Assembly: GCF_026427775.1 (NCBI RefSeq)
Contig: NZ_CP044532.1
Location: forward strand, 3,782,001-3,846,000
DNA: 64,000 bases
Direction of reading: 5' to 3'
Source of the DNA: Arthrobacter sp. CDRTa11
Lineage (GTDB): Bacteria > Actinomycetota > Actinomycetes > Actinomycetales > Micrococcaceae
Below, piece by piece: positions 2,977-28,357 of this stretch. Below the pieces are notes generated by a model that ran no database searches, was not told the DNA's origin, and saw only the letters and a program-made list of their open reading frames with translations. The translations under genes and the position numbers were made by a program. The first letter of the stretch is position 1; each line of letters opens with the position of its first letter.

Positions 2977-3804
2977 TTAGGGGATGGGAACGGGGACGAC
3001 GCCGAGGGGCACCAGCTGCTCGGCGCCGCCGTCGGGGGCCGAGAGCACCCAGATGCCCTTTTCGTGGACCGCCACGGAGTGCTCCCACTGGCAGGAGCGC
3101 TTGCCGTCCGTAGTCACAACGGTCCAGTCGTCTTCCAGGACTGCCGTCTCGATGCCGCCACGGACCAGCATGGGTTCGATCGCAAGGCACAGCCCCGGCC
3201 GAATCTTGGGCCCGCGGTGGCTGGTGCGGTAGTTGAGCACGTCCGGAGCCATATGCATCTCGGAGCCGATGCCGTGGCCTACGTAGTCTTCCAAAATGCC
3301 GAGCGGCTTACCGGGAACAGAGGACACGTAGTCGTCGATGGCCGCGCCGATATCCCCCACATGGCTGCCCTTGGCGAGTGCCGCTATCCCCCGCCACATG
3401 GCCGCCTGCGTCACGTCGGAGAGCCGCTGGTCTTCGGGATCGGCGGTACCCACGATGACGGTCCGTGCCGAGTCGGAGTGCCAGCCATCCACGATCGCGC
3501 CGCCGTCGATCGAGATGATATCGCCATCATTGAGCGTGCGGCTGCCCGGGATGCCGTGTACCACCTCCTCATTGACGGAGGTGCAGATGGAGGCCGGGAA
3601 GCCGTGGTAGCCGAGGAAGTTGGATTTCGCGCCCGCCTCATTCAGGACCGCGGCGAAAACGTCGTCCAGATGCTTGGTGGTGACACCCGGAACCGCCGCG
3701 GCTACGGCGGCATCCAAGGCGCGGGTCAGGACGAGGCCTGCCTCATGCATGGTGCGCATCTGGGCGTTGGTCTTGTATTCGATGCGGGGCTGTCCGAATG
3801 CCAT
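2977..3804 (-). CDS. map: Methionine aminopeptidase, type I
   Basis: It removes the initiator methionine from nascent proteins. The 275-residue product keeps all five metal ligands of the pita-bread fold: Asp in SIDGGAIVDGW, Asp in HSDSARTV, His in GHGIGSEMH, Glu in AIEPML and Glu in WEHSV. The conserved HGFPASICTSVNEEVVHGIP segment is also present. The frame stays open 54 codons upstream, into oleD, but ATG 3804 gives the family start (MAFGQPRIEYKTNAQM). It starts 7 bases after the oleD stop, so it is probably transcribed as the last gene of the oleA-oleD operon, not directly after adk as usual. Confidence 0.96.
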   Translation of the reverse strand: MAFGQPRIEYKTNAQMRTMHEAGLVLTRALDAAVAAAVPGVTTKHLDDVFAAVLNEAGAKSNFLGYHGFPASICTSVNEEVVHGIPGSRTLNDGDIISIDGGAIVDGWHSDSARTVIVGTADPEDQRLSDVTQAAMWRGIAALAKGSHVGDIGAAIDDYVSSVPGKPLGILEDYVGHGIGSEMHMAPDVLNYRTSHRGPKIRPGLCLAIEPMLVRGGIETAVLEDDWTVVTTDGKRSCQWEHSVAVHEKGIWVLSAPDGGAEQLVPLGVVPVPIP

Positions 3805-3811
3805 GTGTACC

Positions 3812-4753
3812 TCAGTGGTTGGTCTCTTGGGCGGGATGGGTTGATCCCAGGGCTCTGATCCATTCTCCCGCACCTGAGAAGCTGCTGGGGACAGGCTCCA
3901 CCCCCACCTCTTCGCGCAGCCGGCGGGTGCTGTAGGTCCGCTCGAAGCCAAGCTGGGAGACGGCATAGCGTGTGAGAGCCGGCGGCTTCCGCGTTACGCT
4001 GCCCAACGCCTCCAGCGAAGCGGCCAGCGTCATTGCCGTCCGCAGCGGGATGAACTGGAGTTCGACGCCGGACCGTCCAGTTTCGTCCAGGACTTCCCGC
4101 AGGACTTCGCCCAGTTTCACCGGCTGGTGGTCGGCCACGTTGACGGGCCCTGTTGCGTCTGAGGCGCACGCGGCGAGCGCTGCTTCGGTCAGGTTCCCGA
4201 TTGACGTCAGCTGGTGGCGCACGTTCGGGCTTCCGACGCACAGCAGCCGGCCGCGCTTTACATTCCGGATGAGCCGCGGCAGCAGGGTCCTGTCACCGGG
4301 CCCGTACACGCCGTGCGGCCTGAGGATCAGTGCATTCGGGTGCTTTGACGCCACCGCCTCCGCCAGGGCCTTGGAGCGGGAGTAGGCATTCAGGTAGCGC
4401 CCGGCCGGGGCTTGCTCGGGCCGGTCAATACAGGGCTGCCACCAGGGATAGACGCTCGAGCTGGAGATATGGACCAACCGGGCACGGGGGAAGGAGGCGG
4501 CCACGGCTTCGGTGCCGAGGACGTTCACACGGTGGAACAATTGCGGCGGTCCCCAGTCACCCACCTGCGCACCGGCATGCACCACGGCGTCCACCTCGGG
4601 CGGGCTCCAAAGATTCCCCTCGGCCAGATCCCACACGGTAAATCCTGGGAGCTGGCGCCTGCCGTAGCGGTACACCTCCCAGCCGCGGTGTTCGGCGGCC
4701 GCCGCCACGGCGGCACCGACAAACCCCGTGGCACCGGTGACAGCGATCCTCAT
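3812..4753 (-). CDS. oleD: OleD-like NAD(P)-dependent beta-keto acid reductase (extended SDR)
   Basis: OleD proteins reduce the 2-alkyl-3-keto acid made by OleA to the beta-hydroxy acid. The 313-residue product begins MRIAVTGATGFVGAAV, an N-terminal Rossmann motif, followed by VDAVVHAGA, ISSSSVYP (catalytic Ser region) and the Tyr-Lys pair in AYSRSKALAE. The C-terminal half carries RPHGVYGPGD and a substrate-binding region ending VPSSFSGAGEWIRAL. The ATG overlaps the oleC stop (ATGA), so translation is coupled. Function is assigned from the SDR fold plus the adjoining OleC and OleA; as an isolated sequence it would be only an NAD-dependent epimerase/dehydratase family protein. Confidence 0.85.
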   Translation of the reverse strand: MRIAVTGATGFVGAAVAAAAEHRGWEVYRYGRRQLPGFTVWDLAEGNLWSPPEVDAVVHAGAQVGDWGPPQLFHRVNVLGTEAVAASFPRARLVHISSSSVYPWWQPCIDRPEQAPAGRYLNAYSRSKALAEAVASKHPNALILRPHGVYGPGDRTLLPRLIRNVKRGRLLCVGSPNVRHQLTSIGNLTEAALAACASDATGPVNVADHQPVKLGEVLREVLDETGRSGVELQFIPLRTAMTLAASLEALGSVTRKPPALTRYAVSQLGFERTYSTRRLREEVGVEPVPSSFSGAGEWIRALGSTHPAQETNH

Positions 4754-6546
4754 ACGTGGCCGCCCTCGCCGTCCGAAGGGAGGGAGCCGGCTGGAGCCAA
4801 GGCCGGGTTCGAACTTGTGGAGCCGTCCGCCGTCGTGACCCGCTCCGAGAAGAGTGTCCTCAGGGCGATGCGGTCCGGTTTGCGGTGCCTGCCGGAAGTG
4901 GGCAGGTGGGGCATGATCTCTATGCTGTCCGGCAGGGCCGATTCGTCGATGAGTTTGGGCAGCTCCCGTTGGAGCGTGCGAAGCAGAGCATCGTGTGCCT
5001 GGCCGGGCCGCGGCTCGACGGCGAGCCAAACTGCTTCGTCGCCGATGCCGTTGGGAACACCCACCATGACGGCCTGGGCCACGCACGCAATTCCAGCGAT
5101 GACAGGCTCGTACAGGCCCGGATAAATGTTGGTTTTCCCGCGGATGATCATGTCCTTCTTCCGCCCCAGCAGGACCAGCCTGGCCGGTCCCGGCCCGCTA
5201 CCCGGTCCGCCGGTTTCCCCCGGGCCTTGATCCGTCCGGCCGTGATCCAGCCGGACGAGGTCACCGGTGGCATGTTCGTCCATGGATCCTTCGCCGAGGT
5301 AGCCAAGGCACATGTTCGGCCCCGCGACCATCAGTTCGTGGTCCTCCGCCACCCGCACGGTCATACCCGGCAGCGGTTCCCCGAGGAAGTCTCCTTCCCC
5401 GGAGCCGTCGGCCGCCCGGTATTGGGCCGTGCGCCCGGAGGCGAAGTCCAGCTTCTCCTGTCCTGACGCTATCGCGATGGGAAGTACCTCGGTCATGCCG
5501 TAGATGCAATGAAAGCGGACTGCCGGCAGCAGCCGGGCGGCCCGCTCCAGGAAGGAGGCAAGGACGGGCGCGGCTCCCAGCATGACGGTTTTCAGCGTTT
5601 CCGGCCAGGCGATCCTGCCGGTTTCGACGGCGTCCAGGATGGGTGCCAGCTGCGAGGGCACCAGGAAAACGTGGGTTGCCGCTGCCTGCCCCGGGGAGGA
5701 GCCCAACGCCGCGGCGAACTGGAGCGGATCGATTGTGGCGGAGAGCCCGTAGGACGGCATAGTCCAATGGGCTCCGGCGATCAGGGCGGGCAGCCCCATC
5801 ATGAACTGTTCCGAGTGGATACGGTCGCCTGCAGCGAAGGTGCACCGGGTGCTGAGTTGGGTGAATCCCGCTGCCAGGGTGCCGCGGGTGTGCACCACGC
5901 CCTTGGGACTGCCCGTGGTGCCCGAGGTGAAGATGATGACCGCTTCCTGCCCCGGAGCTGCGTCCACCGGCGGCACCGCACCCTTTGCCTGTCCGGAAGA
6001 ATCGGCCGCTCCCCAACGGGAAGGTAGGCGGGAGAGCTGCCGGATGTTCGTGGACCTCAAGGGAACGCCCGGCAGCCAGGGGCCGGAGTGGTAATGGCGG
6101 ACCTTCATGGCTGCATAGTCCGGCAGCAGGAGGCCGCGGCGCCGGGCGAGGGGACGGAGCGGACCCCTTGCACTGAGCGCGTAGAGCAGGGATTCAGCGG
6201 CCGCCCACTGCGGCGAGGCCAGTGCGGCCCTGTTGCGGAACAGTTCGGGGCCCACCCCGGGATCGATAAAAACAATGGCACCGCCGGCCCGCACCGCGGC
6301 CAGTGCCAGCGTAAAGGCCGCGGGGCCGGGCCTGACCGAGAACAGCAGGCGTTCGCCCGGGCCGAAGCCATCGCGCCTCAGTCCGGCGGCAGTGGATTCG
6401 ATTCCGGCGGCAAGGTCCCGGTAGCTGATGATCCTGCCGGGCCGGCCGTTCCGCTTTCCCGGCCCGGTGATGGCCGGGTGGTCCGGGTACCGGGAAGCTG
6501 CATCGTAGACCGCTGTGATGAGGTCCGGCTGGCTCTTAGTGTCCAC
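4750..6546 (-). CDS. oleC: OleC-like beta-lactone synthetase (AMP-binding superfamily)
   Basis: OleC uses ATP to convert 2-alkyl-3-hydroxy acids to cis-beta-lactones. The 598-residue product has the adenylation motifs VIIFTSGTTGSPKGVVHTRG (P-loop, about residue 210), YGMTEVLPI (A5), the GDLVRLD region and LLGRKKDMIIRGKTNIYP (hinge and A8). The AIVFIDPG segment around residue 95 is typical of the OleC group. The start is GTG 6546, overlapping the P450 end by 11 bases. In Micrococcus luteus OleC is fused to OleB; here no OleB hydrolase domain is fused or adjacent. A generic fatty-acid:CoA or AMP ligase is the alternative reading. Confidence 0.82.
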   Translation of the reverse strand: MDTKSQPDLITAVYDAASRYPDHPAITGPGKRNGRPGRIISYRDLAAGIESTAAGLRRDGFGPGERLLFSVRPGPAAFTLALAAVRAGGAIVFIDPGVGPELFRNRAALASPQWAAAESLLYALSARGPLRPLARRRGLLLPDYAAMKVRHYHSGPWLPGVPLRSTNIRQLSRLPSRWGAADSSGQAKGAVPPVDAAPGQEAVIIFTSGTTGSPKGVVHTRGTLAAGFTQLSTRCTFAAGDRIHSEQFMMGLPALIAGAHWTMPSYGLSATIDPLQFAAALGSSPGQAAATHVFLVPSQLAPILDAVETGRIAWPETLKTVMLGAAPVLASFLERAARLLPAVRFHCIYGMTEVLPIAIASGQEKLDFASGRTAQYRAADGSGEGDFLGEPLPGMTVRVAEDHELMVAGPNMCLGYLGEGSMDEHATGDLVRLDHGRTDQGPGETGGPGSGPGPARLVLLGRKKDMIIRGKTNIYPGLYEPVIAGIACVAQAVMVGVPNGIGDEAVWLAVEPRPGQAHDALLRTLQRELPKLIDESALPDSIEIMPHLPTSGRHRKPDRIALRTLFSERVTTADGSTSSNPALAPAGSLPSDGEGGHV

Positions 6547-7738
6547 GGGCCAGCTCCATTGACTTGTAGTGGGGTATCAGCACGTTCCGGCTGACGGTCC
6601 GTTGACGGATGCGCCAGGGCTTCCGGGCGTATTCATCCAGCAGCACATTCAAAGCCCCGTTGATTTCGGCCATGGCCAGCGGCATGCCGATGCAGAAATG
6701 CGCCCCCGCCCCGAACCAGAGCTGCCGGGCCGGAGCCGGAACGGGCACTGCCGGATCAAAGCCGCCCAGGCTCTTCACCGCATGGACAGTGGAGAGCAGG
6801 ATGCGGTCACCAGGCCTGATCCTGACGCCTCCAAGCTGTTTTTCCGCCGTCGCTTCCCGGAGCATCATGGGCGAGGGTGCGGTGAAGCGCAGCCCTTCAT
6901 TGACGGCGTCCGGCAGGCCGGCCCGGTCAGCCGCCAGCATGGGCAGCCTGCCGTCGTCGAACAGCAGGGCGGCGAGCCGTGGAACGTAGGACACCAGCGT
7001 CTCAGTCCCCGCGATGACAAACGCACTGACAATCCCCACGGCCTCATCCTCACTCAGGCCAAGCTCACGCAGGCGGCCGGGGAAGGTGGCAGGGTCATCT
7101 CGGCGGTACGCCTCCCGCACGGGCCCGGCAAGAATTTCGACGGCGGCCTTCGCCTTCGCCACCTGGGGCGGCGTCAGTTGTGGCCGGCCGAGGCGAACCA
7201 AGCCGGTGATGGACGTACCGAGGCTGAAGAGGTCGGTATCCGGCAGGCGTCCGGGAGCCTGGTCAGGAACCCCGAGCAGGCGGCTGATCACTCCCCCGGA
7301 CAGTTCCTTGACCAGTCCCACAAACTCCACGCTGTGGCCGTTCTCAAGTCCGGCCGACAGGCGTCCGCGCATCCGCTCCACGGCCGGGGCAACAATGGAC
7401 TCCACGGCCCGGGGCGTGAAGAGCCCGTTGAGCCGGCGCCGCAGCTCAAGGTGCGCTTCGCCGTCCATGTTCAGCAGGGCGCGGGGACCAACCACCGGAG
7501 TCCAGAGCGCGCCGGAGGCCCTGGTTCCGGTTTTTGAGTAGCTGGCGTCCATGAGTACTTCCCGGAGCAGCGAGGCATCGCTCACCAAAACACCCAGGCC
7601 GGGCAGCCTGACCACGGGGCGGAGTTTCCCCAGTCCACGGATCAGCGGGTAGGCGAAGGGGTGTGCTGCGGTGTGGAGGCGCCGTTCCCAACCTGCCAGG
7701 CGGCCGGTGCTCAGGCCCAAACCTTCCGAAGAAGTCAC
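6536..7738 (-). CDS. Cytochrome P450
   Basis: A soluble haem monooxygenase of about 400 residues. The diagnostic motifs are the I-helix oxygen-binding AGTET, the K-helix ExxR (NEGLRF), and the haem-thiolate loop FGAGAHFCIG with the proximal Cys. The frame remains open for more than 100 codons upstream, inside the glycosyltransferase gene, but the chosen GTG at 7738 overlaps that gene's TGA (GTGA) and gives a standard-length bacterial P450. It lies in the middle of the ole-like operon, so it probably oxidises the lipid product or a precursor. No ferredoxin or reductase gene is nearby, so electron partners must come from elsewhere. Confidence 0.9.
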   Translation of the reverse strand: MTSSEGLGLSTGRLAGWERRLHTAAHPFAYPLIRGLGKLRPVVRLPGLGVLVSDASLLREVLMDASYSKTGTRASGALWTPVVGPRALLNMDGEAHLELRRRLNGLFTPRAVESIVAPAVERMRGRLSAGLENGHSVEFVGLVKELSGGVISRLLGVPDQAPGRLPDTDLFSLGTSITGLVRLGRPQLTPPQVAKAKAAVEILAGPVREAYRRDDPATFPGRLRELGLSEDEAVGIVSAFVIAGTETLVSYVPRLAALLFDDGRLPMLAADRAGLPDAVNEGLRFTAPSPMMLREATAEKQLGGVRIRPGDRILLSTVHAVKSLGGFDPAVPVPAPARQLWFGAGAHFCIGMPLAMAEINGALNVLLDEYARKPWRIRQRTVSRNVLIPHYKSMELARGH

Positions 7739-8520
7739 CGGATGTCCACGTGTTCTGGCCGGTAGCGGTGGTCCGCGTACCAGGCAAGCGTGTTCGGCAG
7801 GCCCCACGCCTTCACCCGGCGGGAAGAACCGAACACCACCACATTCCGCCGGAGCGCATACGCCCGCGTTAGTTTGCGGACGCGGTTGGAAAGCGCCCGG
7901 TCCTCGTGGAGCTCCTCGATGCTGGTGCGGGGAAACCCGCCCGACCGGAGGTAGAGATCTGCCGTGATGGCCATATTGCAGCCGGGCAGCATCTGGTACG
8001 GGCCCAGATACCCTTCCCCTTTGTTGCCCGGGCGGATACGGCCAAAGAAGGACGCCACCTCCACTGCCCCCAGCATCAGCCACCGCTGGCCGCGGCTCAG
8101 GCCCTCGTCCAGGCGGGGGTTCAGCTGCCCGGCGATCATCTCCAGGCCGTCGTCGAAGGCATCCATGATCCGCAGCGTCCAGTCCGGCGCCGGGAGGCAG
8201 TCGGCATCGGTTCGTGCCAGCCAGCGGGCACCGTTCAATGCACCAAAGCGCATCCCGGTGTCCGCTGCGGCGCCGGTCCCCTTCTCCGGCTCACTAATCA
8301 ACCGGATGTCCATGCCAGGGTTCAGCGCGGCGAATTCCGCAACGATGGCCTGGCTGGCGTCTGTGGAGCCGTTGTCTACGACTACAAGGGTGAAATCGGG
8401 GCGGAGTTGGGCAGCGAGTGCCTGCAGCGTTTCCAAGATCAGCTTCTCTTCATTCAGCACAGGCATGGCAACGCACAGAGCCCTCACTGGAGGAACGCCG
8501 GCCGCCGAAGGCCCGGTCAC
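7735..8520 (-). CDS. Family 2 glycosyltransferase
   Basis: The 261-residue product is a GT-A fold enzyme with no obvious membrane segments. It shows AMPVLNEEKLILETLQAL at the N-terminus, VVVDNGSTDAS, the DxD-type metal/nucleotide motif in RTDADCLP, and EELHEDRALSNRV, which fits the catalytic ED position. The start is a GTG at 8520 that overlaps the oleA TGA (GTGA), so it is translationally coupled. Its place between oleA and the P450 suggests it glycosylates the pathway product, but neither donor nor acceptor can be read from the sequence. Confidence 0.85.
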   Translation of the reverse strand: MTGPSAAGVPPVRALCVAMPVLNEEKLILETLQALAAQLRPDFTLVVVDNGSTDASQAIVAEFAALNPGMDIRLISEPEKGTGAAADTGMRFGALNGARWLARTDADCLPAPDWTLRIMDAFDDGLEMIAGQLNPRLDEGLSRGQRWLMLGAVEVASFFGRIRPGNKGEGYLGPYQMLPGCNMAITADLYLRSGGFPRTSIEELHEDRALSNRVRKLTRAYALRRNVVVFGSSRRVKAWGLPNTLAWYADHRYRPEHVDIR

Positions 8521-9551
8521 AGCCTGACCACGGCGATCCCCAGGCTGACCCCGCCGGCCAGTCCCACCAGTGCCACCAGGTCACCGGGCCCGCAACGGCC
8601 CAGGTCCTGCGCAACCTTTAGCTGAAGGGCCAGGCTGACGGAGGCCATGTTGCCGAACTCCTCAACGGTCTTGACGAGTTTCTCCTGTGGCACCCCGGCG
8701 CCACGGGCGAAGACATCCCGGTACGGTGCGCTTACCTGGTGCACACAGACCACGGCGAAATCGGACCAGGCCAGTTCAAGCCGGGCCAGTGTTTCATCCA
8801 GGATGCCGCGGCCAAGGTCCAGGAACGCATCCTTGAGTTTCTCGCCGTCCATGGTGAAATAGGTCGCCTCGGGATCCCTGGGGGCCACGGATCCGCCGGT
8901 GCCCAGTGTTCCCACTGCCCAGTGGCTGCTTTTCGCCGTGAATCCCGTCCCCAGCACGCGCGGTCCTGATTCGTCCTGCGGATCCGCAGGTTCCAATAAC
9001 AGCGCACAGCCGGCGTCGCTCATGGTGTAGCCGGGGAACGCTGCAGCAAAAGTTTCCTGGTCCGGAACGGCCCACCGCACTGCCCTGGACGGGGACTCAC
9101 CGCTGACCAGGAGCACCCGGCGGTACCGGCCGGCGCCGATCAGGGCGTCCGCCACTTCCAGCCCGTTCAGCAGGCTGTTACAGGCATTCTTGACGTCCAT
9201 AACGGGACACGTGATTCCCAGTTTGGCCGCCACCATGTGCCCGGTGGCGGGCTCCACCATGTCCTGGCTGGCGGAGGCAAAGATGAGGAGTCCGACGTCG
9301 GCGGGCTGGAGTCCGAGGTCTGCCAGCAATTTTCCGGCGGCAACAGCCGCAAGGTCTGACGCCTGCTCTGTCGCGGCCATCACGGACCTGGTCCGGATGC
9401 CGGTCAGACGGCCGATGAGGCCTTTGGGAACACGGAAGCCGGGGCTGGCCGCAGCAAGCTGTTGTTCCAGATCCTCGGTGCTCAGGCGGCCCGGCGGCAC
9501 ATAAACTTCGAGGCCGGCTATCCTCGCCGCGCCCGGAATAGGTTGGTGCAT
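8517..9551 (-). CDS. oleA: OleA-like thiolase (3-oxoacyl-ACP synthase III family)
   Basis: OleA performs a head-to-head, non-decarboxylative Claisen condensation of two acyl-CoAs. The 344-residue product keeps the thiolase triad: Cys124 in DVKNACNSLLNG, His271 in CVHQVSAPY and Asn301 in EFGNMASVSL. Glu100 (MVEPATGH), 24 residues before the Cys, is in the place of the Glu that OleA uses to deprotonate the second substrate. ATG 9551 is preceded by GGGAG six bases away. It is the first gene of a five-gene coupled set, and an 8-1-8 palindrome lies upstream. FabH or another KAS III enzyme is the alternative if taken alone. Confidence 0.82.
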   Translation of the reverse strand: MHQPIPGAARIAGLEVYVPPGRLSTEDLEQQLAAASPGFRVPKGLIGRLTGIRTRSVMAATEQASDLAAVAAGKLLADLGLQPADVGLLIFASASQDMVEPATGHMVAAKLGITCPVMDVKNACNSLLNGLEVADALIGAGRYRRVLLVSGESPSRAVRWAVPDQETFAAAFPGYTMSDAGCALLLEPADPQDESGPRVLGTGFTAKSSHWAVGTLGTGGSVAPRDPEATYFTMDGEKLKDAFLDLGRGILDETLARLELAWSDFAVVCVHQVSAPYRDVFARGAGVPQEKLVKTVEEFGNMASVSLALQLKVAQDLGRCGPGDLVALVGLAGGVSLGIAVVRL

Positions 9552-9687: not shown

Positions 9688-9734
9688 AAGGAAAGGCGCG
9701 TCCCGTACTCGATGGTACGGGACGCGCCTTCCTT
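9688..9734 (-). terminator. Intrinsic terminator after adk
   Basis: A 20-bp stem with one bulged A (right arm GTACGGGACGCGCCTTCCTT) and a 6-base loop lies 72 bases past the adk stop. On the minus strand the stem is followed by a moderately T-rich stretch. It ends the secY-adk unit and implies that oleA has its own promoter in 9552-9687. Confidence 0.8.
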
Positions 9735-9805: not shown

Positions 9806-10384
9806 TCAGGCTGCCTGTGCGGCCTTGATGGCCTGCATTACACGGTCCGTCACTTCGTCGATGGCACCGATGCCGTCAACCTGGGTCAGGATGCCGCGCT
9901 CCGCGTATTTGGCAACAACTGCCTCAGTCTGCTCGTGGTACAGGTCAAGGCGGTGGCGGATGACGGCTTCATTGTCGTCGCTCCGGCCGGTTTCCTTGGC
10001 ACGGCCCAGGAGACGGGTGACCAGTTCCTCATCGTCGGCGGTCAGCTGCAGAACGACGTCGAGCTTCTCTTCGCCTTTGGCGAGAATCTCGTCGAGGTAG
10101 TCCACCTGTGCCGTGGTGCGCGGGTAACCGTCGAGCAGGAATCCGGTTTCGACGTCTGCCTCGCTGAGGCGGTCCCGGACCATCTTGTTGGTCACGCTGT
10201 CCGGAACGAAGTCCCCGTTGTCCATGTACTTCTTGGCTTCGATGCCAAGCGGGGTCTCACCCTTGACGTTGGCGCGGAAGATGTCACCGGTGGAGATCGC
10301 CACAACGCCGAGGCGCTCCGATATGCGTTCCGCCTGTGTCCCTTTTCCGGAGCCGGGTGGTCCAATAATTAACATTCTCGTCAT
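9806..10384 (-). CDS. adk: Adenylate kinase
   Basis: It catalyses ATP + AMP = 2 ADP. The 192-residue product starts MTRMLIIGPPGSGKGTQAER with the Walker A loop, followed by STGDIFRAN (AMP site), GFLLDGYPRT and RLLGRAKETGRSDDN. The LID domain is the short form common in actinobacteria, about 25 residues shorter than the E. coli enzyme. The ATG overlaps the secY stop (ATGA), so the two genes are coupled. The usual downstream neighbour map is displaced by the ole-like cluster. Confidence 0.97.
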   Translation of the reverse strand: MTRMLIIGPPGSGKGTQAERISERLGVVAISTGDIFRANVKGETPLGIEAKKYMDNGDFVPDSVTNKMVRDRLSEADVETGFLLDGYPRTTAQVDYLDEILAKGEEKLDVVLQLTADDEELVTRLLGRAKETGRSDDNEAVIRHRLDLYHEQTEAVVAKYAERGILTQVDGIGAIDEVTDRVMQAIKAAQAA

Positions 10385-23992: not shown

Positions 23993-26900
23993 TCAGGGCC
24001 GGCTGAACGGTCCGCCGTCCGGCAGTCGGGGCGGGGACTGTTGAGGTTCAGGCTGTTGAGGTTCAGGCTGCATGGGCGCTGATGGCCGCGGCCCGGTCTG
24101 GTCCGGCGCCATCTGCTCAGGCCTGACTCCAGCTATATCGGAGCTACTCGGTACGGCTTCGGCAGGACCGGCGACGGTCCCCCGGTTCAGCCGCCACACC
24201 GCAAAGGCGATCAGCCCGACGGCGATAAGCGCCAGGAGCGCGAAGGTGTAGTGGCGCATGGCCCACAGGATACACACAGCCACTCCTGCAGCACCCCACC
24301 AGACGAACAGCCGCTCCCCCAGCCCAAGTCCCACCATCAGGAGCACGGCCAGAAGGACCAGGGCCCACAGCTGTTGACCGCTGGTGCCGCCGAAAATCAC
24401 GCCAAGCCCGCTCAGCGAGAGAAGTCCTGCACCCGCGGCCACCAGCATTCGCCCGGCGGTCCGTTGGCCCGTGCCGTAGCGGAGGGCGCCCAGGCCTGAC
24501 GCCAACAGCACGTACCACTGGGTCGCCCAGAACGCGTTGGGCATGCCCGCGGAGACCCGGTAGTTGTCACCGGATTGCACGTCCAACCCAAAAATCGCCG
24601 CGCGCTGCAGGGCCGCCGTCACCACCAGCGCACCCACCTCCGCAGTTAGCCTCCGCGCCCTTGATGGCGCTTCGTAATAGCAGATGCCGACGGCGGCAGC
24701 CAGCACCGCTGCGCTGGCCCAGGATGTGGCGTCCACGGGTAAGCCGGCCGCGGCGATGAGGCACAGACCCAGTAAGGCTGTCCCTGTCAAGGACCAACGG
24801 CGCACGGGGTCTTCCCGTAATTGCTCATTCCGGTAGAGCCTTACCAGGTACGAGGCTGCAGCAGCTGTTCCGGCCCCCGCCAGCCAGGGGACGAACGCGC
24901 CCCATACTCCGGAGGTTCCCTGGAAGGCTGCCGTGGCCAGAAGGACGGCACCGCCGAGTCCAGCTGCCGCGGCGGGTGGATAGAAGACCGGATACCCTTC
25001 CAGGTGCGACGCAGTAAAGCACACGGCCGCAAGAACCAGCAGGGCGATGCCAGGCAGCCAGTCTGCTGCCACAGTAGACACGGCAAGCCCGGAAAGTGTG
25101 AACGATCCAGCGGTGCAAAGCCACAACCAGTGTTCCGCACCGCGAAGCTTAACGTTTTGCCGGCGGCTTGCCACGCCGGCACCAGTTGCCAGCAGCGCCA
25201 CCACAAGCAGGACCACCGCAGTCCCTGTGTGGTCCAGTACCGGTGACGCAGGCAGCCTTCCACCAAAGCTGAACAGCGGGCCCAGCGAGAGAACGCCGAA
25301 CAGCGCAGCATAAACGCCGAAGTACAGCGAACCGCGGGCAACGAAAAGGACTCGTGCACCAAGTGCTGAGACAAGAAGCAGCGACAGCTCCAGGAGAACG
25401 AGCCAGCGGCCGCCGTCGTCCTGGGTCAATGCCCGGGCAGGACCAGCCTGGATGACGTAAGCCAGCGGCAGCAGGGCCTGTCCTGCCAACGTAATCCACA
25501 CTGCAGCCTGCTGGAACGGAACCTCGGCCAGCCGCTTCCTCATGAACCAGCGGACCACGTGCTGGGCGGCAAGGACCAGCGCGAAGGTCAGGGAAACGGC
25601 GGTGAGGGAAGCCGTGAGGTCGTAACTCAGCAGCACCGCCAGGCCTGCCGTCAGCACTCTGGCCGCCACGAAGTACCACCCTCTGTATGCCCGCCGGGGT
25701 TCTGCCACCACCATCACTGTGCTAAAGACAGCGAAAATGAACAGCAGGAGTTCCACCTGCTGCAGCTCCCCTCCGGTAACGGCCAGCAGCGAGCCGAAGG
25801 CAACGGGGGCGATCCAGACGGCCCCGGCTTCGGCCCTCAGAACGTACGCCGAGCCAGCGGCGCAGAGTGCCACCAGGATTGCCCCCGAAACAGCCTGCAC
25901 GCCAGCGGGATCCTGCAGCGCCAAGATTCCACAGGCCAGCACCTGCACGAACAGGACGGCACCGGCATCTGCAAGGATCCATCGCGGGGCACGCCGCCGG
26001 GCAACCGCAATAAGGGGCATCGCCAGCTGCAGGGCCAGCACCGCAATCACCACGGACCCAGGGCGAATCACTTCCCCGGCAACGGTCACTACTATTCCCG
26101 CTTGCTGCAGCTGATCAAAGGCGGTGAGAGCAAGGACCGTTGCTGCCCCTCGCCCCAGCCACAGGTAGGCCCAGCGGTGCTGACGCAGCCGCAGCCGGAG
26201 GGCCGTGGCAAACAAGTAGCCGCTCACCAGCACCAGCGCAGCATTTCCGGACCCTTGGGAGACGGCCAGGAATCCGAGACTCACGGCCACGGCGGATACC
26301 GCCAACGGCACGGCCTCCCAAACCGTGGGTTTCCAGTCAGGCTCGGAGACAGGCCGGGGTATCAGCAGCCAGCCGATGGCCAGGGCAGCAAGCAACTGGA
26401 GGATGATCCCGGATCCTGCCAGGCCGGTGTCCGGTACTGAATCAGCCAAGGCAAGGCAGCCCAAGGCCAGCGCCCCCGCGGCAGCGAGGGCACCAAAGCT
26501 CGCTTCCGGTGCCAGAGTCCGCATTCCCGCGCTCTGCAGGATGGCCGTGAGCAACTGCTGGCACACCAGCGCAACCAGCAGCCCGAAAAGCACCGCCGCG
26601 GACCGTGCAGGCCCATCTGGCGTCAAGCCCGCAACGGCTAAGGGTACGGCCAGGGTTAACGCAGCACGGGCGGCGAGCACCATTGTCCCGCGCAGCCTGC
26701 CTACAGCAGGGATAGCCCGAACCGCCCAGAAGGCCGAAGCGAGGACAAGCATTGCGGCCAGGGGCCACGCGCCGAGAACGAAGCCGGCCAAGCCGGCGGT
26801 GACCAGGGCGGCAACCGGAGCCGCCTCAGCCCGCCCGGCCAGCCGCCATGCCAGCACCATGCTGGTGCCAAGCGCCAGCAGCATCGGTACCCACAGGGGA

Positions 26901-28300
26901 ATGGAGCCGCCCGCTGCTGTACCGCCATAACCAAGAAGTCCCGAAGTTATGCCATGGACGGTAAGTGCCATGGTCACCAGCAGCTGACCTCCGAAAGTCA
27001 GCAAAGCGTCCAGGGACCAGCGGCCGTCTTTCCGCGTTGCCTCGCCGGCTACTTCGTTCTCCCCTGCCTGAACCGCTGCCTGATTCGTTGCCTGGTCCGC
27101 CGCGTGAGACCGTGCCGGAAACCAGGCCCCGAGCTGCGCCTGGGCGAGCGCTACAGCCATTGCCTGGACGGCAAGCAGACCGGCGGCAGTCAGCAAGGCA
27201 TCAGAGCCACGCCCGGTCAGATGCCAGACTCCAACGGCAGCGGCGAGGGTCAGGGAGATTCTCGCGGCATAGACATTTGGCAACCGCAGCCGGCCGGGCA
27301 CCGCAGCCATAAGGGCGAAGTACACGCCGCAGAGGGCCATGAGGTTGGCATACCCCGCAGTCCCCAAGAGCAGGGGAACGCAGTTCACAGCCAGGGCCAC
27401 CGCGGGTACCACAAGCGGATGGAGAACCGCCAAGGGCCTGACGTATACCGGTGGAAGCCAGCCTGGGCGTGCCAGCGCCAGAACGGTCAGCAGCACTGCC
27501 ACTGCAACCATGGCCCCGAAGTACCAGGCCAGTGCACCGCCGAGGACACTGACGCCGGACCAGGCCAAGGAGCCGACAAAGGTGAGGGAAAGGTAGACCA
27601 GTACCCGGCTCTCAAGTCTGACTGCCGCCACCACGTACGCCGCGGTCCCGATCAGGGAGGTGATAAGCCAGGCGGTGGGCCCCTGTTGCAGGACGAAGTT
27701 ATACAGCGCCAGCCCTGTCACAGGAATCAGAGCCAAGCCCGTACCTGCAAAGGCTACGGATGCAGGTTTGAGCCGCGCCACCCGCGCATGCAAAACGAAG
27801 CCTGCCACGTAGAACATGGCCGTGACCGTGCAAACGCCCAGGAAACGGAACATGGGCGGAAGGTTGGTTCCGATGAAAAGCGCAGCGGCAGCCACCAGGA
27901 GGAGGCTGGCCACATACAGGGTGATATTGATGTTCTGGCGGTCCCGCCTTTCCCGCCGCGCCTGACGCTCGGCGGGCGTCTCTACCGGAGGCGGCGCGAA
28001 AGCCGGTCCTGGCAATGTGCCAGCCGTACCTGCCTGAGGTTGGAAGGGCAAAGGCTGTGCCGCGACGGCGGGACGAATGGTCTCCTGCCTCACTGCACGC
28101 TGTCCTGGGGATGGCCATGGGACTGCCGCGGGCGACGCAACGGGTTGGGCAGTTGGTTGGGCAATTGGTTGGGCAGTGGCTTGGGCAGCAGTGGGCGGGT
28201 GGAATACCGGCGGGCGGGCGGGGACCTTGGAGGCCATGGCATCCACCCAGCCTTGGAGGTGCCCGGCGCGGTAGCCTGCCTCGTACGATTCGTCCCTCAT
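23993..28300 (-). CDS. Very large polytopic membrane protein of unknown function
   Basis: About 1,435 residues. The N-terminal 120 residues are cytoplasmic and Pro/Ala/Gln-rich, with AQP(I/T/V) repeats, starting MRDESYEAGYRAGHLQGWVD. From ITLYVASLLLVAAAALFIG onwards the rest is almost wholly hydrophobic, alternating helices with short polar turns, enough for roughly 35-45 membrane spans. The C-terminus is a Pro/Gln-rich cytoplasmic tail. I see no catalytic motif, nucleotide-binding site or transporter signature. ATG 28300 is preferred, with AAAGAG upstream; a TTG start 11 codons earlier is possible. The gene follows the tuf terminator and has an 11-bp inverted repeat in its promoter space. 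Similar giant hypothetical membrane proteins exist in actinobacteria; the function is unknown to me. Confidence 0.8.
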   Translation of the reverse strand: MRDESYEAGYRAGHLQGWVDAMASKVPARPPVFHPPTAAQATAQPIAQPTAQPVASPAAVPWPSPGQRAVRQETIRPAVAAQPLPFQPQAGTAGTLPGPAFAPPPVETPAERQARRERRDRQNINITLYVASLLLVAAAALFIGTNLPPMFRFLGVCTVTAMFYVAGFVLHARVARLKPASVAFAGTGLALIPVTGLALYNFVLQQGPTAWLITSLIGTAAYVVAAVRLESRVLVYLSLTFVGSLAWSGVSVLGGALAWYFGAMVAVAVLLTVLALARPGWLPPVYVRPLAVLHPLVVPAVALAVNCVPLLLGTAGYANLMALCGVYFALMAAVPGRLRLPNVYAARISLTLAAAVGVWHLTGRGSDALLTAAGLLAVQAMAVALAQAQLGAWFPARSHAADQATNQAAVQAGENEVAGEATRKDGRWSLDALLTFGGQLLVTMALTVHGITSGLLGYGGTAAGGSIPLWVPMLLALGTSMVLAWRLAGRAEAAPVAALVTAGLAGFVLGAWPLAAMLVLASAFWAVRAIPAVGRLRGTMVLAARAALTLAVPLAVAGLTPDGPARSAAVLFGLLVALVCQQLLTAILQSAGMRTLAPEASFGALAAAGALALGCLALADSVPDTGLAGSGIILQLLAALAIGWLLIPRPVSEPDWKPTVWEAVPLAVSAVAVSLGFLAVSQGSGNAALVLVSGYLFATALRLRLRQHRWAYLWLGRGAATVLALTAFDQLQQAGIVVTVAGEVIRPGSVVIAVLALQLAMPLIAVARRRAPRWILADAGAVLFVQVLACGILALQDPAGVQAVSGAILVALCAAGSAYVLRAEAGAVWIAPVAFGSLLAVTGGELQQVELLLFIFAVFSTVMVVAEPRRAYRGWYFVAARVLTAGLAVLLSYDLTASLTAVSLTFALVLAAQHVVRWFMRKRLAEVPFQQAAVWITLAGQALLPLAYVIQAGPARALTQDDGGRWLVLLELSLLLVSALGARVLFVARGSLYFGVYAALFGVLSLGPLFSFGGRLPASPVLDHTGTAVVLLVVALLATGAGVASRRQNVKLRGAEHWLWLCTAGSFTLSGLAVSTVAADWLPGIALLVLAAVCFTASHLEGYPVFYPPAAAAGLGGAVLLATAAFQGTSGVWGAFVPWLAGAGTAAAASYLVRLYRNEQLREDPVRRWSLTGTALLGLCLIAAAGLPVDATSWASAAVLAAAVGICYYEAPSRARRLTAEVGALVVTAALQRAAIFGLDVQSGDNYRVSAGMPNAFWATQWYVLLASGLGALRYGTGQRTAGRMLVAAGAGLLSLSGLGVIFGGTSGQQLWALVLLAVLLMVGLGLGERLFVWWGAAGVAVCILWAMRHYTFALLALIAVGLIAFAVWRLNRGTVAGPAEAVPSSSDIAGVRPEQMAPDQTGPRPSAPMQPEPQQPEPQQSPPRLPDGGPFSRP

Positions 28301-28330
28301 GGGTCTCTTTCCCGGTGCAGGCGCTAAGCG

Positions 28331-28357
28331 CAATTAATCCAATGAGTGGATTAATTG
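28331..28357. promoter_or_regulatory. Inverted repeat operator candidate upstream of the giant membrane protein gene
   Basis: CAATTAATCCA-ATGAG-TGGATTAATTG is a perfect 11-bp inverted repeat, strikingly AT-rich for this genome. Only about 65 bases lie between the tuf terminator and the gene start, so it must overlap the promoter. On the minus strand TTGCTA (28358-28363) and GATTAA (28334-28339) are 18 bases apart. A dimeric repressor site of MarR/TetR type is plausible. Confidence 0.5.

What the first reader, a model, noticed from the sequence alone, without database searches (positions are those of the whole stretch)
3812..9551. OleA-OleC-OleD cluster without OleB but with a P450 and a glycosyltransferase
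Seen: an OleA-like thiolase, GT2, P450, OleC-like ligase and OleD-like SDR in five overlapping genes. Known: OleA condenses two acyl-CoAs, OleD reduces, OleC closes a beta-lactone and OleB decarboxylates it to an olefin. No OleB hydrolase is fused or adjacent. Inference: the product could be an intact, oxidised and/or glycosylated long-chain beta-lactone, rather than an olefin. Similar logic applies to nocardiolactone and lipstatin pathways, but this gene combination is not one I can name.
Basis: partly seen in the sequence, partly recalled or inferred. Interest (0 to 1): 0.82.

Follow-up and report, generated by a model that had tools for sequence, protein, structure and literature searches.

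The report
Five-gene bacterial OleA glycolipid operon
A soil bacterium carries a compact set of five genes that probably joins two fatty acids, oxidises them and attaches a sugar instead of turning them into hydrocarbons; the gene set had been noted once before, but its wide spread, its variants and a possible link to known ring-shaped sugar-lipids are worth testing.

Summary
Five intact, overlapping genes (OleA-GT2-P450-OleC-OleD, window 3812-9551, minus strand) sit between adk and map of an Arthrobacter-like chromosome whose genome shows no close OleB match and no second OleA besides a FabH-like gene. The combination is not new: Smith et al. 2020 (PMC7064751) describe the same five families in Actinoplanes atraurantiacus, without OleB, and propose a hydroxylated, glycosylated beta-lactone. 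New here: of 147 related loci found, 80 were kept and 69 of these have all five genes in this order. Four Herbiconiux loci and one relative carry an F390-synthetase-like ligase instead of OleC and no such GT2; their OleAs nest among five-gene OleAs. In Thermomonospora GT2 and OleC are fused, with P450 and OleD together elsewhere. The ligase is sister to OleB-associated OleCs but keeps an acyl-CoA-ligase hinge (Asp in 71 of 72) that those read lack. So a non-olefin product is supported; a beta-lactone is unproven, and a glycosyl ester or macrolactone (glucolipsin/arthrobacilin type) is a serious rival. Class: new member of a known kind.

The parts
8517..9551 (-). OleA-like acyl-CoA condensing thiolase (KAS III fold), 344 aa
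   Evidence: Pfam PF08541/PF08545; Glu99/Cys123/His270/Asn300 align with X. campestris OleA Glu117, Cys143, His285, Asn315 (alignment; Glu117 and His285 are named in reference titles shown, the other two numbers are recalled); the genome's FabH-like gene has Thr at the Glu position
7735..8520 (-). soluble family-2 glycosyltransferase, 261 aa, GT-A fold
   Evidence: PF00535; DxD and ED kept in 76 of 76; AlphaFold model mean pLDDT 87, GT-A glycosyltransferases as PDB neighbours
6536..7738 (-). bacterial cytochrome P450, 400 aa
   Evidence: PF00067; heme Cys 78 of 78, ExxR 77 of 78, acid-alcohol pair 78 of 78; nearest solved P450s by sequence are assorted bacterial enzymes, many of them hydroxylases
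4750..6546 (-). OleC-family adenylate-forming ligase, 598 aa
   Evidence: PF00501; OleC-family branch 97/94 against 12 generic ligases; hinge motif GRKKDMIIRG
3812..4753 (-). OleD-like NAD(P)-dependent 2-alkyl-3-oxoacid reductase (SDR), 313 aa
   Evidence: NF042422 is the best family match, 113 bits, below its cut-off of 580; YxxxK kept in 74 of 74
9691..9732 (-). terminator-like hairpin between adk and oleA
   Evidence: 18-pair stem; the scan found 8 such sites against 3.8 expected by chance, this one by far the longest
9806..10384 (-). adk, upstream flank of the insertion site
   Evidence: adk-map spacing 72-229 bp between aligned ends in 10 non-carrier relatives
2977..3804 (-). map (methionine aminopeptidase), downstream flank, 7 bp after oleD

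Best explanation
The five genes are one translationally coupled pathway for an oxidised glycolipid built on the OleA/OleD scaffold. OleA joins two acyl-CoAs (inferred), OleD reduces the 3-oxo group to a 2-alkyl-3-hydroxy acid (inferred), the P450 hydroxylates an alkyl chain (inferred), GT2 adds a sugar (inferred), and the OleC-family ligase activates the carboxyl with ATP and closes it onto a hydroxyl (inferred). Without OleB the product is not decarboxylated to an olefin. Shown here: gene content, intact catalytic residues, co-conservation, no OleB match in the genome. Not shown: which hydroxyl the carboxyl is closed onto. I put about 0.40 on the lipid's own 3-hydroxyl (a glycosylated beta-lactone, the published proposal), about 0.35 on a sugar hydroxyl (a glycolipid ester or macrolactone), the rest on other fates.
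For: 69 of 80 loci keep OleA-GT2-P450-OleC-OleD in order, with catalytic residues conserved. The OleA-type Glu is present in all 41 OleAs of the tree set and absent from the genome's FabH-like gene. OleC family separated from 12 generic ligases with 97/94. OleD best matched by OleD models. No OleB and no second OleA found in the genome. In two Thermomonospora genomes the set is split into OleA+[GT2-ligase fusion] and P450+OleD, yet all five are kept. The A. atraurantiacus OleA, from a cluster of the same five families, was reported active (passages).
Against: No chemistry is known. The ligase is only 27-32% identical to OleBC ligases and the OleC model scores it no better (95 bits) than two generic ligases of the same genome (97 and 94 bits). 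Its second-best NCBIfam match is a long-chain acyl-CoA ligase model, the best one for the Saccharopolyspora ligase. Herbiconiux loci lack this GT2 and OleC, so neither is universal. 8 of 50 carriers tested also have an OleB fusion elsewhere, so absence of OleB is not a rule. The OleD copies of the two Thermomonospora genomes each show a TGA inside the matched stretch.
Confidence: 0.68

Rival explanations
1. Glycosylated beta-lactone: the ligase closes the carboxyl on the lipid's own 3-hydroxyl; the P450 puts a hydroxyl on a chain and GT2 glycosylates that hydroxyl.
For: OleACD without OleB is associated with lipstatin and nocardiolactone, and the same proposal was made for A. atraurantiacus. 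The ligase is in the OleC family.
Against: The hinge motif resembles that of acyl-CoA ligases, Asp in 71 of 72 read, whereas the OleB-associated OleCs read have His or Glu. GT2 is fused to the ligase, not linked to the P450, in Thermomonospora. The P450 is kept at Herbiconiux loci that lack this GT2. I recall no glycosylated beta-lactone from these genera (recall, not a search result).
Confidence: 0.4
2. Macrocyclic or ester glycolipid: GT2 glycosylates the 3-hydroxyl made by OleD, and the ligase esterifies the carboxyl onto a sugar hydroxyl of another unit, giving glucolipsin/arthrobacilin-type rings; the P450 adds a further hydroxyl as in fattiviracins and cycloviracins.
For: Glucolipsin is a dimer of glucose and a 2-methyl-3-hydroxy acid closed from the carboxyl to glucose C6, and fattiviracins/cycloviracins carry trihydroxy acids (PMC4365757, passages). 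Arthrobacilins are cyclic glycolipids of Arthrobacter (PMC7459527 and PMC7564310, passages). GT2-ligase fusion; hinge motif kept; one Microbacteriaceae-like variant (L182) has a GT21-family enzyme and an EryCIII-like glycosyltransferase piece between OleD and OleA.
Against: No genes are assigned to these compounds in the passages seen, and no producer genome was tested here. The acyl parts of arthrobacilins were not checked. The ligase's nearest relatives in the tree belong to olefin clusters, where OleC makes a beta-lactone.
Confidence: 0.35
3. The ligase is an ordinary acyl-CoA ligase feeding or recycling OleA substrates and has no ring-closing role; the product is a glycosylated 3-hydroxy acid or hydroxy-ketone.
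For: Hinge and A8 motif like CoA ligases; a long-chain acyl-CoA ligase model is its second-best family, 112 bits; AMP-binding_C was recognised in 3 of 4 window-type or A. atraurantiacus-order ligases and in 0 of 4 OleB-associated ones of the same call, though not in the window's own ligase.
Against: The tree places it with OleC rather than with the 12 generic ligases; fixed operon position; at Herbiconiux loci another adenylating enzyme takes its place, so the step looks pathway-specific.
Confidence: 0.12
4. Degenerate or silent former olefin cluster.
For: Patchy presence: a P450 orthologue (67% identity or more) in 4 of the 37 genomes of the window's genus group, G000 included.
Against: All five ORFs are intact with catalytic residues and the set is conserved across many genera; the olefin clusters of the genus are a separate lineage.
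Confidence: 0.03

Closest known systems
Actinoplanes atraurantiacus OleA / glycosyltransferase / OleC / P450 / OleD cluster (Smith et al. 2020, PMC7064751)
   Same: Same five protein families, no OleB candidate in the genome, same inferred chemistry; its OleA was active in their assay.
   Different: Listed as OleA, GT, OleC, P450, OleD; the window has GT2-P450-OleC. Four loci found here fit the listed order so far as their genes were detected (L184 and L188 all five; L189 all five with an extra GT2; L185 no OleD found), and their ligases are sister to the window's clade. The A. atraurantiacus sequence itself was not retrieved and its figure not seen.
oleABCD / oleA-oleBC-oleD long-chain olefin pathway of Micrococcales
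   Same: OleA, OleC and OleD families and (inferred) reactions.
   Different: OleB present and fused; OleA 26-29% identical to the window's; no GT2 or P450 match in the four regions read; ligase hinge His.
Nocardiolactone (nlt) and lipstatin (lst) beta-lactone pathways
   Same: OleA/C/D logic without OleB, as reported in PMC7064751.
Macrocyclic glycolipids: glucolipsins, cycloviracins, fattiviracins, arthrobacilins
   Same: The chemistry could follow from the gene set (glycosylated 3-hydroxy acids closed into lactones; actinobacterial producers including Arthrobacter; passages).
   Different: No genes known to me; the link is inferred only.

Membership tests
OleA | Cys/His/Asn triad plus the OleA Glu (X. 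campestris Glu117) | tested here: met
OleA | Condensation of two long acyl-CoAs in vitro | not testable with these tools
   Only the A. atraurantiacus OleA, of a similar cluster, is reported active
OleC (beta-lactone synthetase) | Groups with OleB-associated OleCs rather than generic ligases | tested here: met
   97/94 against 12 generic ligases taken from the window's genome and Herbiconiux only; 100/99 with five; 90/65 without intermediates
OleC (beta-lactone synthetase) | Reaches the curated cut-off of NF045786 or NF045785 | tested here: not met
   95 and 52 bits against cut-offs 900 and 850; a Micrococcales OleBC ligase also fails (309 and 267 bits), so the test is strict
OleC (beta-lactone synthetase) | Hinge/A8 motif as in the OleB-associated OleCs read here (His or Glu, no NIYP) | tested here: not met
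   Asp with an N(I/V)YP-type motif in the cluster; whether this motif defines OleC is my inference
OleD | SDR with YxxxK, best match to OleD models | tested here: met
   below the equivalog cut-off of 580 bits
Olefin (oleABCD) pathway | OleB fused, adjacent or elsewhere in the genome | tested here: not met
   0 hits at E <= 1e-10 in G000, 27 candidates scored
A. atraurantiacus-type five-gene cluster | OleA, GT, P450, OleC, OleD families together without OleB | tested here: met
   gene order differs
Glucolipsin/arthrobacilin-type macrocyclic glycolipid pathway | Operon present in a producer genome and needed for the compound | not tested
   No producer genome identified here

The most novel reading that the evidence does not exclude
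The operon is the missing pathway for actinobacterial macrocyclic glycolipids (arthrobacilin, glucolipsin, cycloviracin type): an Ole-family ligase has become a glycolipid macrolactone synthetase working with a dedicated, sometimes fused GT2, and 'F390 synthetase-related' ligases (TIGR02304, function unknown) can replace it, making them carboxyl-activating partners of OleA/OleD.
Probability: 0.27. Interest if true: 0.8.

Novelty: new member of a known kind. Interest (0 to 1): 0.5.

Why it matters
If the product is a glycosylated beta-lactone it would be an amphiphilic covalent inhibitor made by many soil actinobacteria; if it is a macrocyclic glycolipid it would give genes to a compound class for which none turned up in the papers seen here. 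Either way it shows the Ole scaffold feeding a glycolipid branch, and the swap of OleC for an F390-synthetase-like ligase makes the role of that uncharacterised family testable.

Tried and rejected
Rejected: a second, canonical ole cluster elsewhere in the genome (none found). Rejected: 'the P450 is lost in Thermomonospora' - it sits with OleD at another locus. Rejected: a general rule that carriers lack OleB (8 of 50 have one; the 50, four Herbiconiux among them, were chosen by me from 80 because of a cap, and in the genomes with the most candidates only 49 were scored). Not shown: anticorrelation with OleB within the genus; 4 carriers of 37 are too few.

Discarded or limited results: the first ligase tree used wrongly oriented loci and was replaced. 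F1_L177 was left out of the ligase trees for a bad reading frame; own_L039 and own_L041 (long branches) and 7 of the 16 window-type rows were left out. The OleD query was out of frame and was replaced. The bootstrap of the OleA tree had not settled, and its deep forks are open. The genome scan kept the best 80 of 147 loci, so 67 were not examined; of the 33 class-sample genomes with an OleA of this clade I read regions of 21 besides G000 and G043, so 10 were not read. GT2 was not searched genome-wide in Herbiconiux or G465, nor OleC in G465. The pattern for OleB-associated OleCs allowed only His or Asp at the hinge and matched 14 of 18 loci; three of the other four were read by alignment (Glu), L202 was not. 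The unfused OleBs of L186, L187, L191 and L192 rest on 33-37% identity.

The GT2 structure gave only a GT-A fold with assorted acceptors and identifies neither donor nor acceptor. A genome-mining paper reporting a Pseudarthrobacter 'betalactone' cluster (PMC12025171, passages) is not shown to be this operon. Statements that something is not in print rest on searches in one open-access library, whose listings were capped (for example 30 of 36 papers, 15 of 43); a Nocardia ligase paper (asked for) and an arthrobacilin paper were not held. Of PMC7064751 I saw the outline, one section and passages; of PMC7158056 the outline and part 1 of the Results; of PMC2649909, PMC4365757, PMC5168871, PMC7413640, PMC7459527, PMC7564310, PMC7918646, PMC8171317, PMC10024075, PMC12025171 and PMC13047676 passages only; of all others search listings at most.
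Full report
What is there. Between adk and map, inside the ribosomal-protein region of a 5.16 Mb single-contig genome (G000), five genes run on the minus strand with overlaps of 4-11 bases: OleA 8517-9551, GT2 7735-8520, P450 6536-7738, OleC-family ligase 4750-6546, OleD 3812-4753. Family assignments come from Pfam and NCBIfam. An 18-pair terminator-like hairpin lies between adk and oleA, and map starts 7 bases after oleD, so map may be co-transcribed with the operon (inference). In 10 relatives of the same genus group without the operon, adk and map are 72-229 bp apart between aligned ends; in the three carriers of that set (G000, G005, G008) no map lay within the 1.5 kb flank. The operon is therefore an island at this site in this genus group. 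All 16 Arthrobacter/Paenarthrobacter loci among the 80 kept by the genome scan (L060-L074 and L091) have it between adk and map.

OleB. A query from the OleB domain of an OleBC fusion found nothing in G000 at E <= 1e-10 and a match in 29 of the 59 genomes searched; 24 of these are among the 37 genomes of the window's genus group. G000 has no other OleA; its only further hit is a FabH-like gene. Of 50 carrier genomes tested (chosen from 80), 8 have a close OleB in a fusion-sized frame (E <= 6.5e-99), 11 only weak hits (6e-11 to 5e-28) and 31 none.

Distribution. The genome-contig scan with an OleA alignment found 147 encoded relatives and kept the best 80. In 69 of 80 the five genes lie in the order OleA-GT2-P450-OleC-OleD on one strand. 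The 11 exceptions: five cut by a contig end (L085, L101, L112, L113, L130), one with an inverted ligase (L095), Isoptericola (L136, no OleD found and a GT2 matching in two frames) and four Herbiconiux. Genera with the full set include Arthrobacter, Paenarthrobacter, Saccharopolyspora, Lentzea, Pseudonocardia, Cellulosimicrobium, Promicromonospora, Salinibacterium, Nonomuraea and Streptomyces. In an even sample of the class, 33 of 394 genomes have an OleA of this clade at E <= 1e-60.

Architectures. Of 20 class-sample regions fetched (read): six have the complete window order; two are partial (L176, L177); four have OleA-GT2-OleC-P450, with OleD found in three and an extra GT2 in one (L184, L185, L188, L189), the order in which Smith et al. 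list the A. atraurantiacus genes; one has the F390-ligase form (L182); four have OleA, OleC, OleD and an OleB-like gene (33-37% identity) without GT2 or P450; three show OleA alone. In Herbiconiux an 'F390 synthetase-related' ligase (TIGR02304, 352 bits against a cut-off of 252 for L099; the other three are 62-67% identical to it) precedes OleD-OleA-P450, and a search of the four genomes for the cluster-type ligase gave only 27-40% matches. In the OleA tree these four and L182 form one clade (100/99) that joins five five-gene OleAs of Microbacteriaceae (family partly by recall) at a 100/99 branch (bootstrap not settled). The reading is that OleC was displaced and this GT2 lost from the locus. 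TIGR02304 exceeds its cut-off in 4 of 394 class genomes, and in all four an OleA/KAS III-like match (26-33% in three) and an OleD-like match lie nearby (in G465 the OleA is about 4 kb away).

Fusion and split. P450 (69-71%) and OleD (49%, with one TGA inside the matched stretch) orthologues sit together at another locus in both genomes. All five genes are thus still recognisable although the operon is split.

Ligase. With intermediates included, window-type ligases and those of the A. atraurantiacus-like order are sister to OleB-associated OleCs; the whole OleC family is separated from 12 generic ligases with 97/94 (100/99 with five; 90/65 without intermediates). Yet 71 of 72 readable cluster ligases have Asp at the hinge, typically in a GRxxDMxxR..N(I/V)YP motif like most generic ligases of the genome, while OleB-associated OleCs have His (14 of 14 matched by a pattern that allowed His or Asp, out of 18 loci tried) or Glu (three of four unfused ones; Glu also occurs in two generic ligases). 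In CoA ligases this motif serves the second half-reaction on an external nucleophile (general knowledge). This argues, without proving, that the cluster ligase may pass its acyl-AMP to something other than the lipid's own hydroxyl.

Interpretation. The published proposal for A. atraurantiacus is Claisen condensation, reduction, P450 hydroxylation, glycosylation and beta-lactone closure. My data support the family assignments behind it and add breadth, but leave the last step open. The rival is chemistry already known from actinobacteria: glucolipsins, fattiviracins and cycloviracins are glycosylated hydroxy acids closed into lactones through sugar hydroxyls (PMC4365757, passages), and Arthrobacter makes cyclic glycolipids called arthrobacilins (passages). 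I recall no genes for them, and the listings of searches showed no title or abstract start that reports any.

Verdict. Real, intact and widespread; combination already in print; product undetermined. Filed as a new member of a known kind, with variants (ligase displacement, GT2-ligase fusion, hinge motif) that make the function testable.

Noticed in passing
G000:C1:3791809, 4418968, 2324436, 2074700, 4327416: Five adenylate kinase genes (100, 87, 65, 64 and 56% identity to the window's adk) in one genome, while the other 18 genomes of that search had 0-3 matches at E <= 1e-60.
   Followed up: no
window 23993-28333: A 1446-aa minus-strand ORF with many hydrophobic stretches covers the region of extreme AT skew at 24-28 kb.
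   Followed up: partly
L256 and L257 (Thermomonospora OleD): Both OleD matches contain one TGA inside the matched stretch; not examined further.
   Followed up: no
L182:3949-7140: In a relative of the window's order (G465) a GT21-family enzyme (PF13506; ceramide glucosyltransferase family by recall) and an EryCIII-like glycosyltransferase read in two frames lie between OleD and OleA.
   Followed up: partly
L223, L224, L225: F390 synthetase-related ligases near OleA/KAS III-like and OleD-like genes in three more actinobacterial genomes.
   Followed up: partly
L047:8541-9294: Isoptericola halotolerans GT2 matches in two reading frames and no OleD was found at the locus; an OleBC cluster elsewhere in that genome holds a weak OleD match.
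   Followed up: partly
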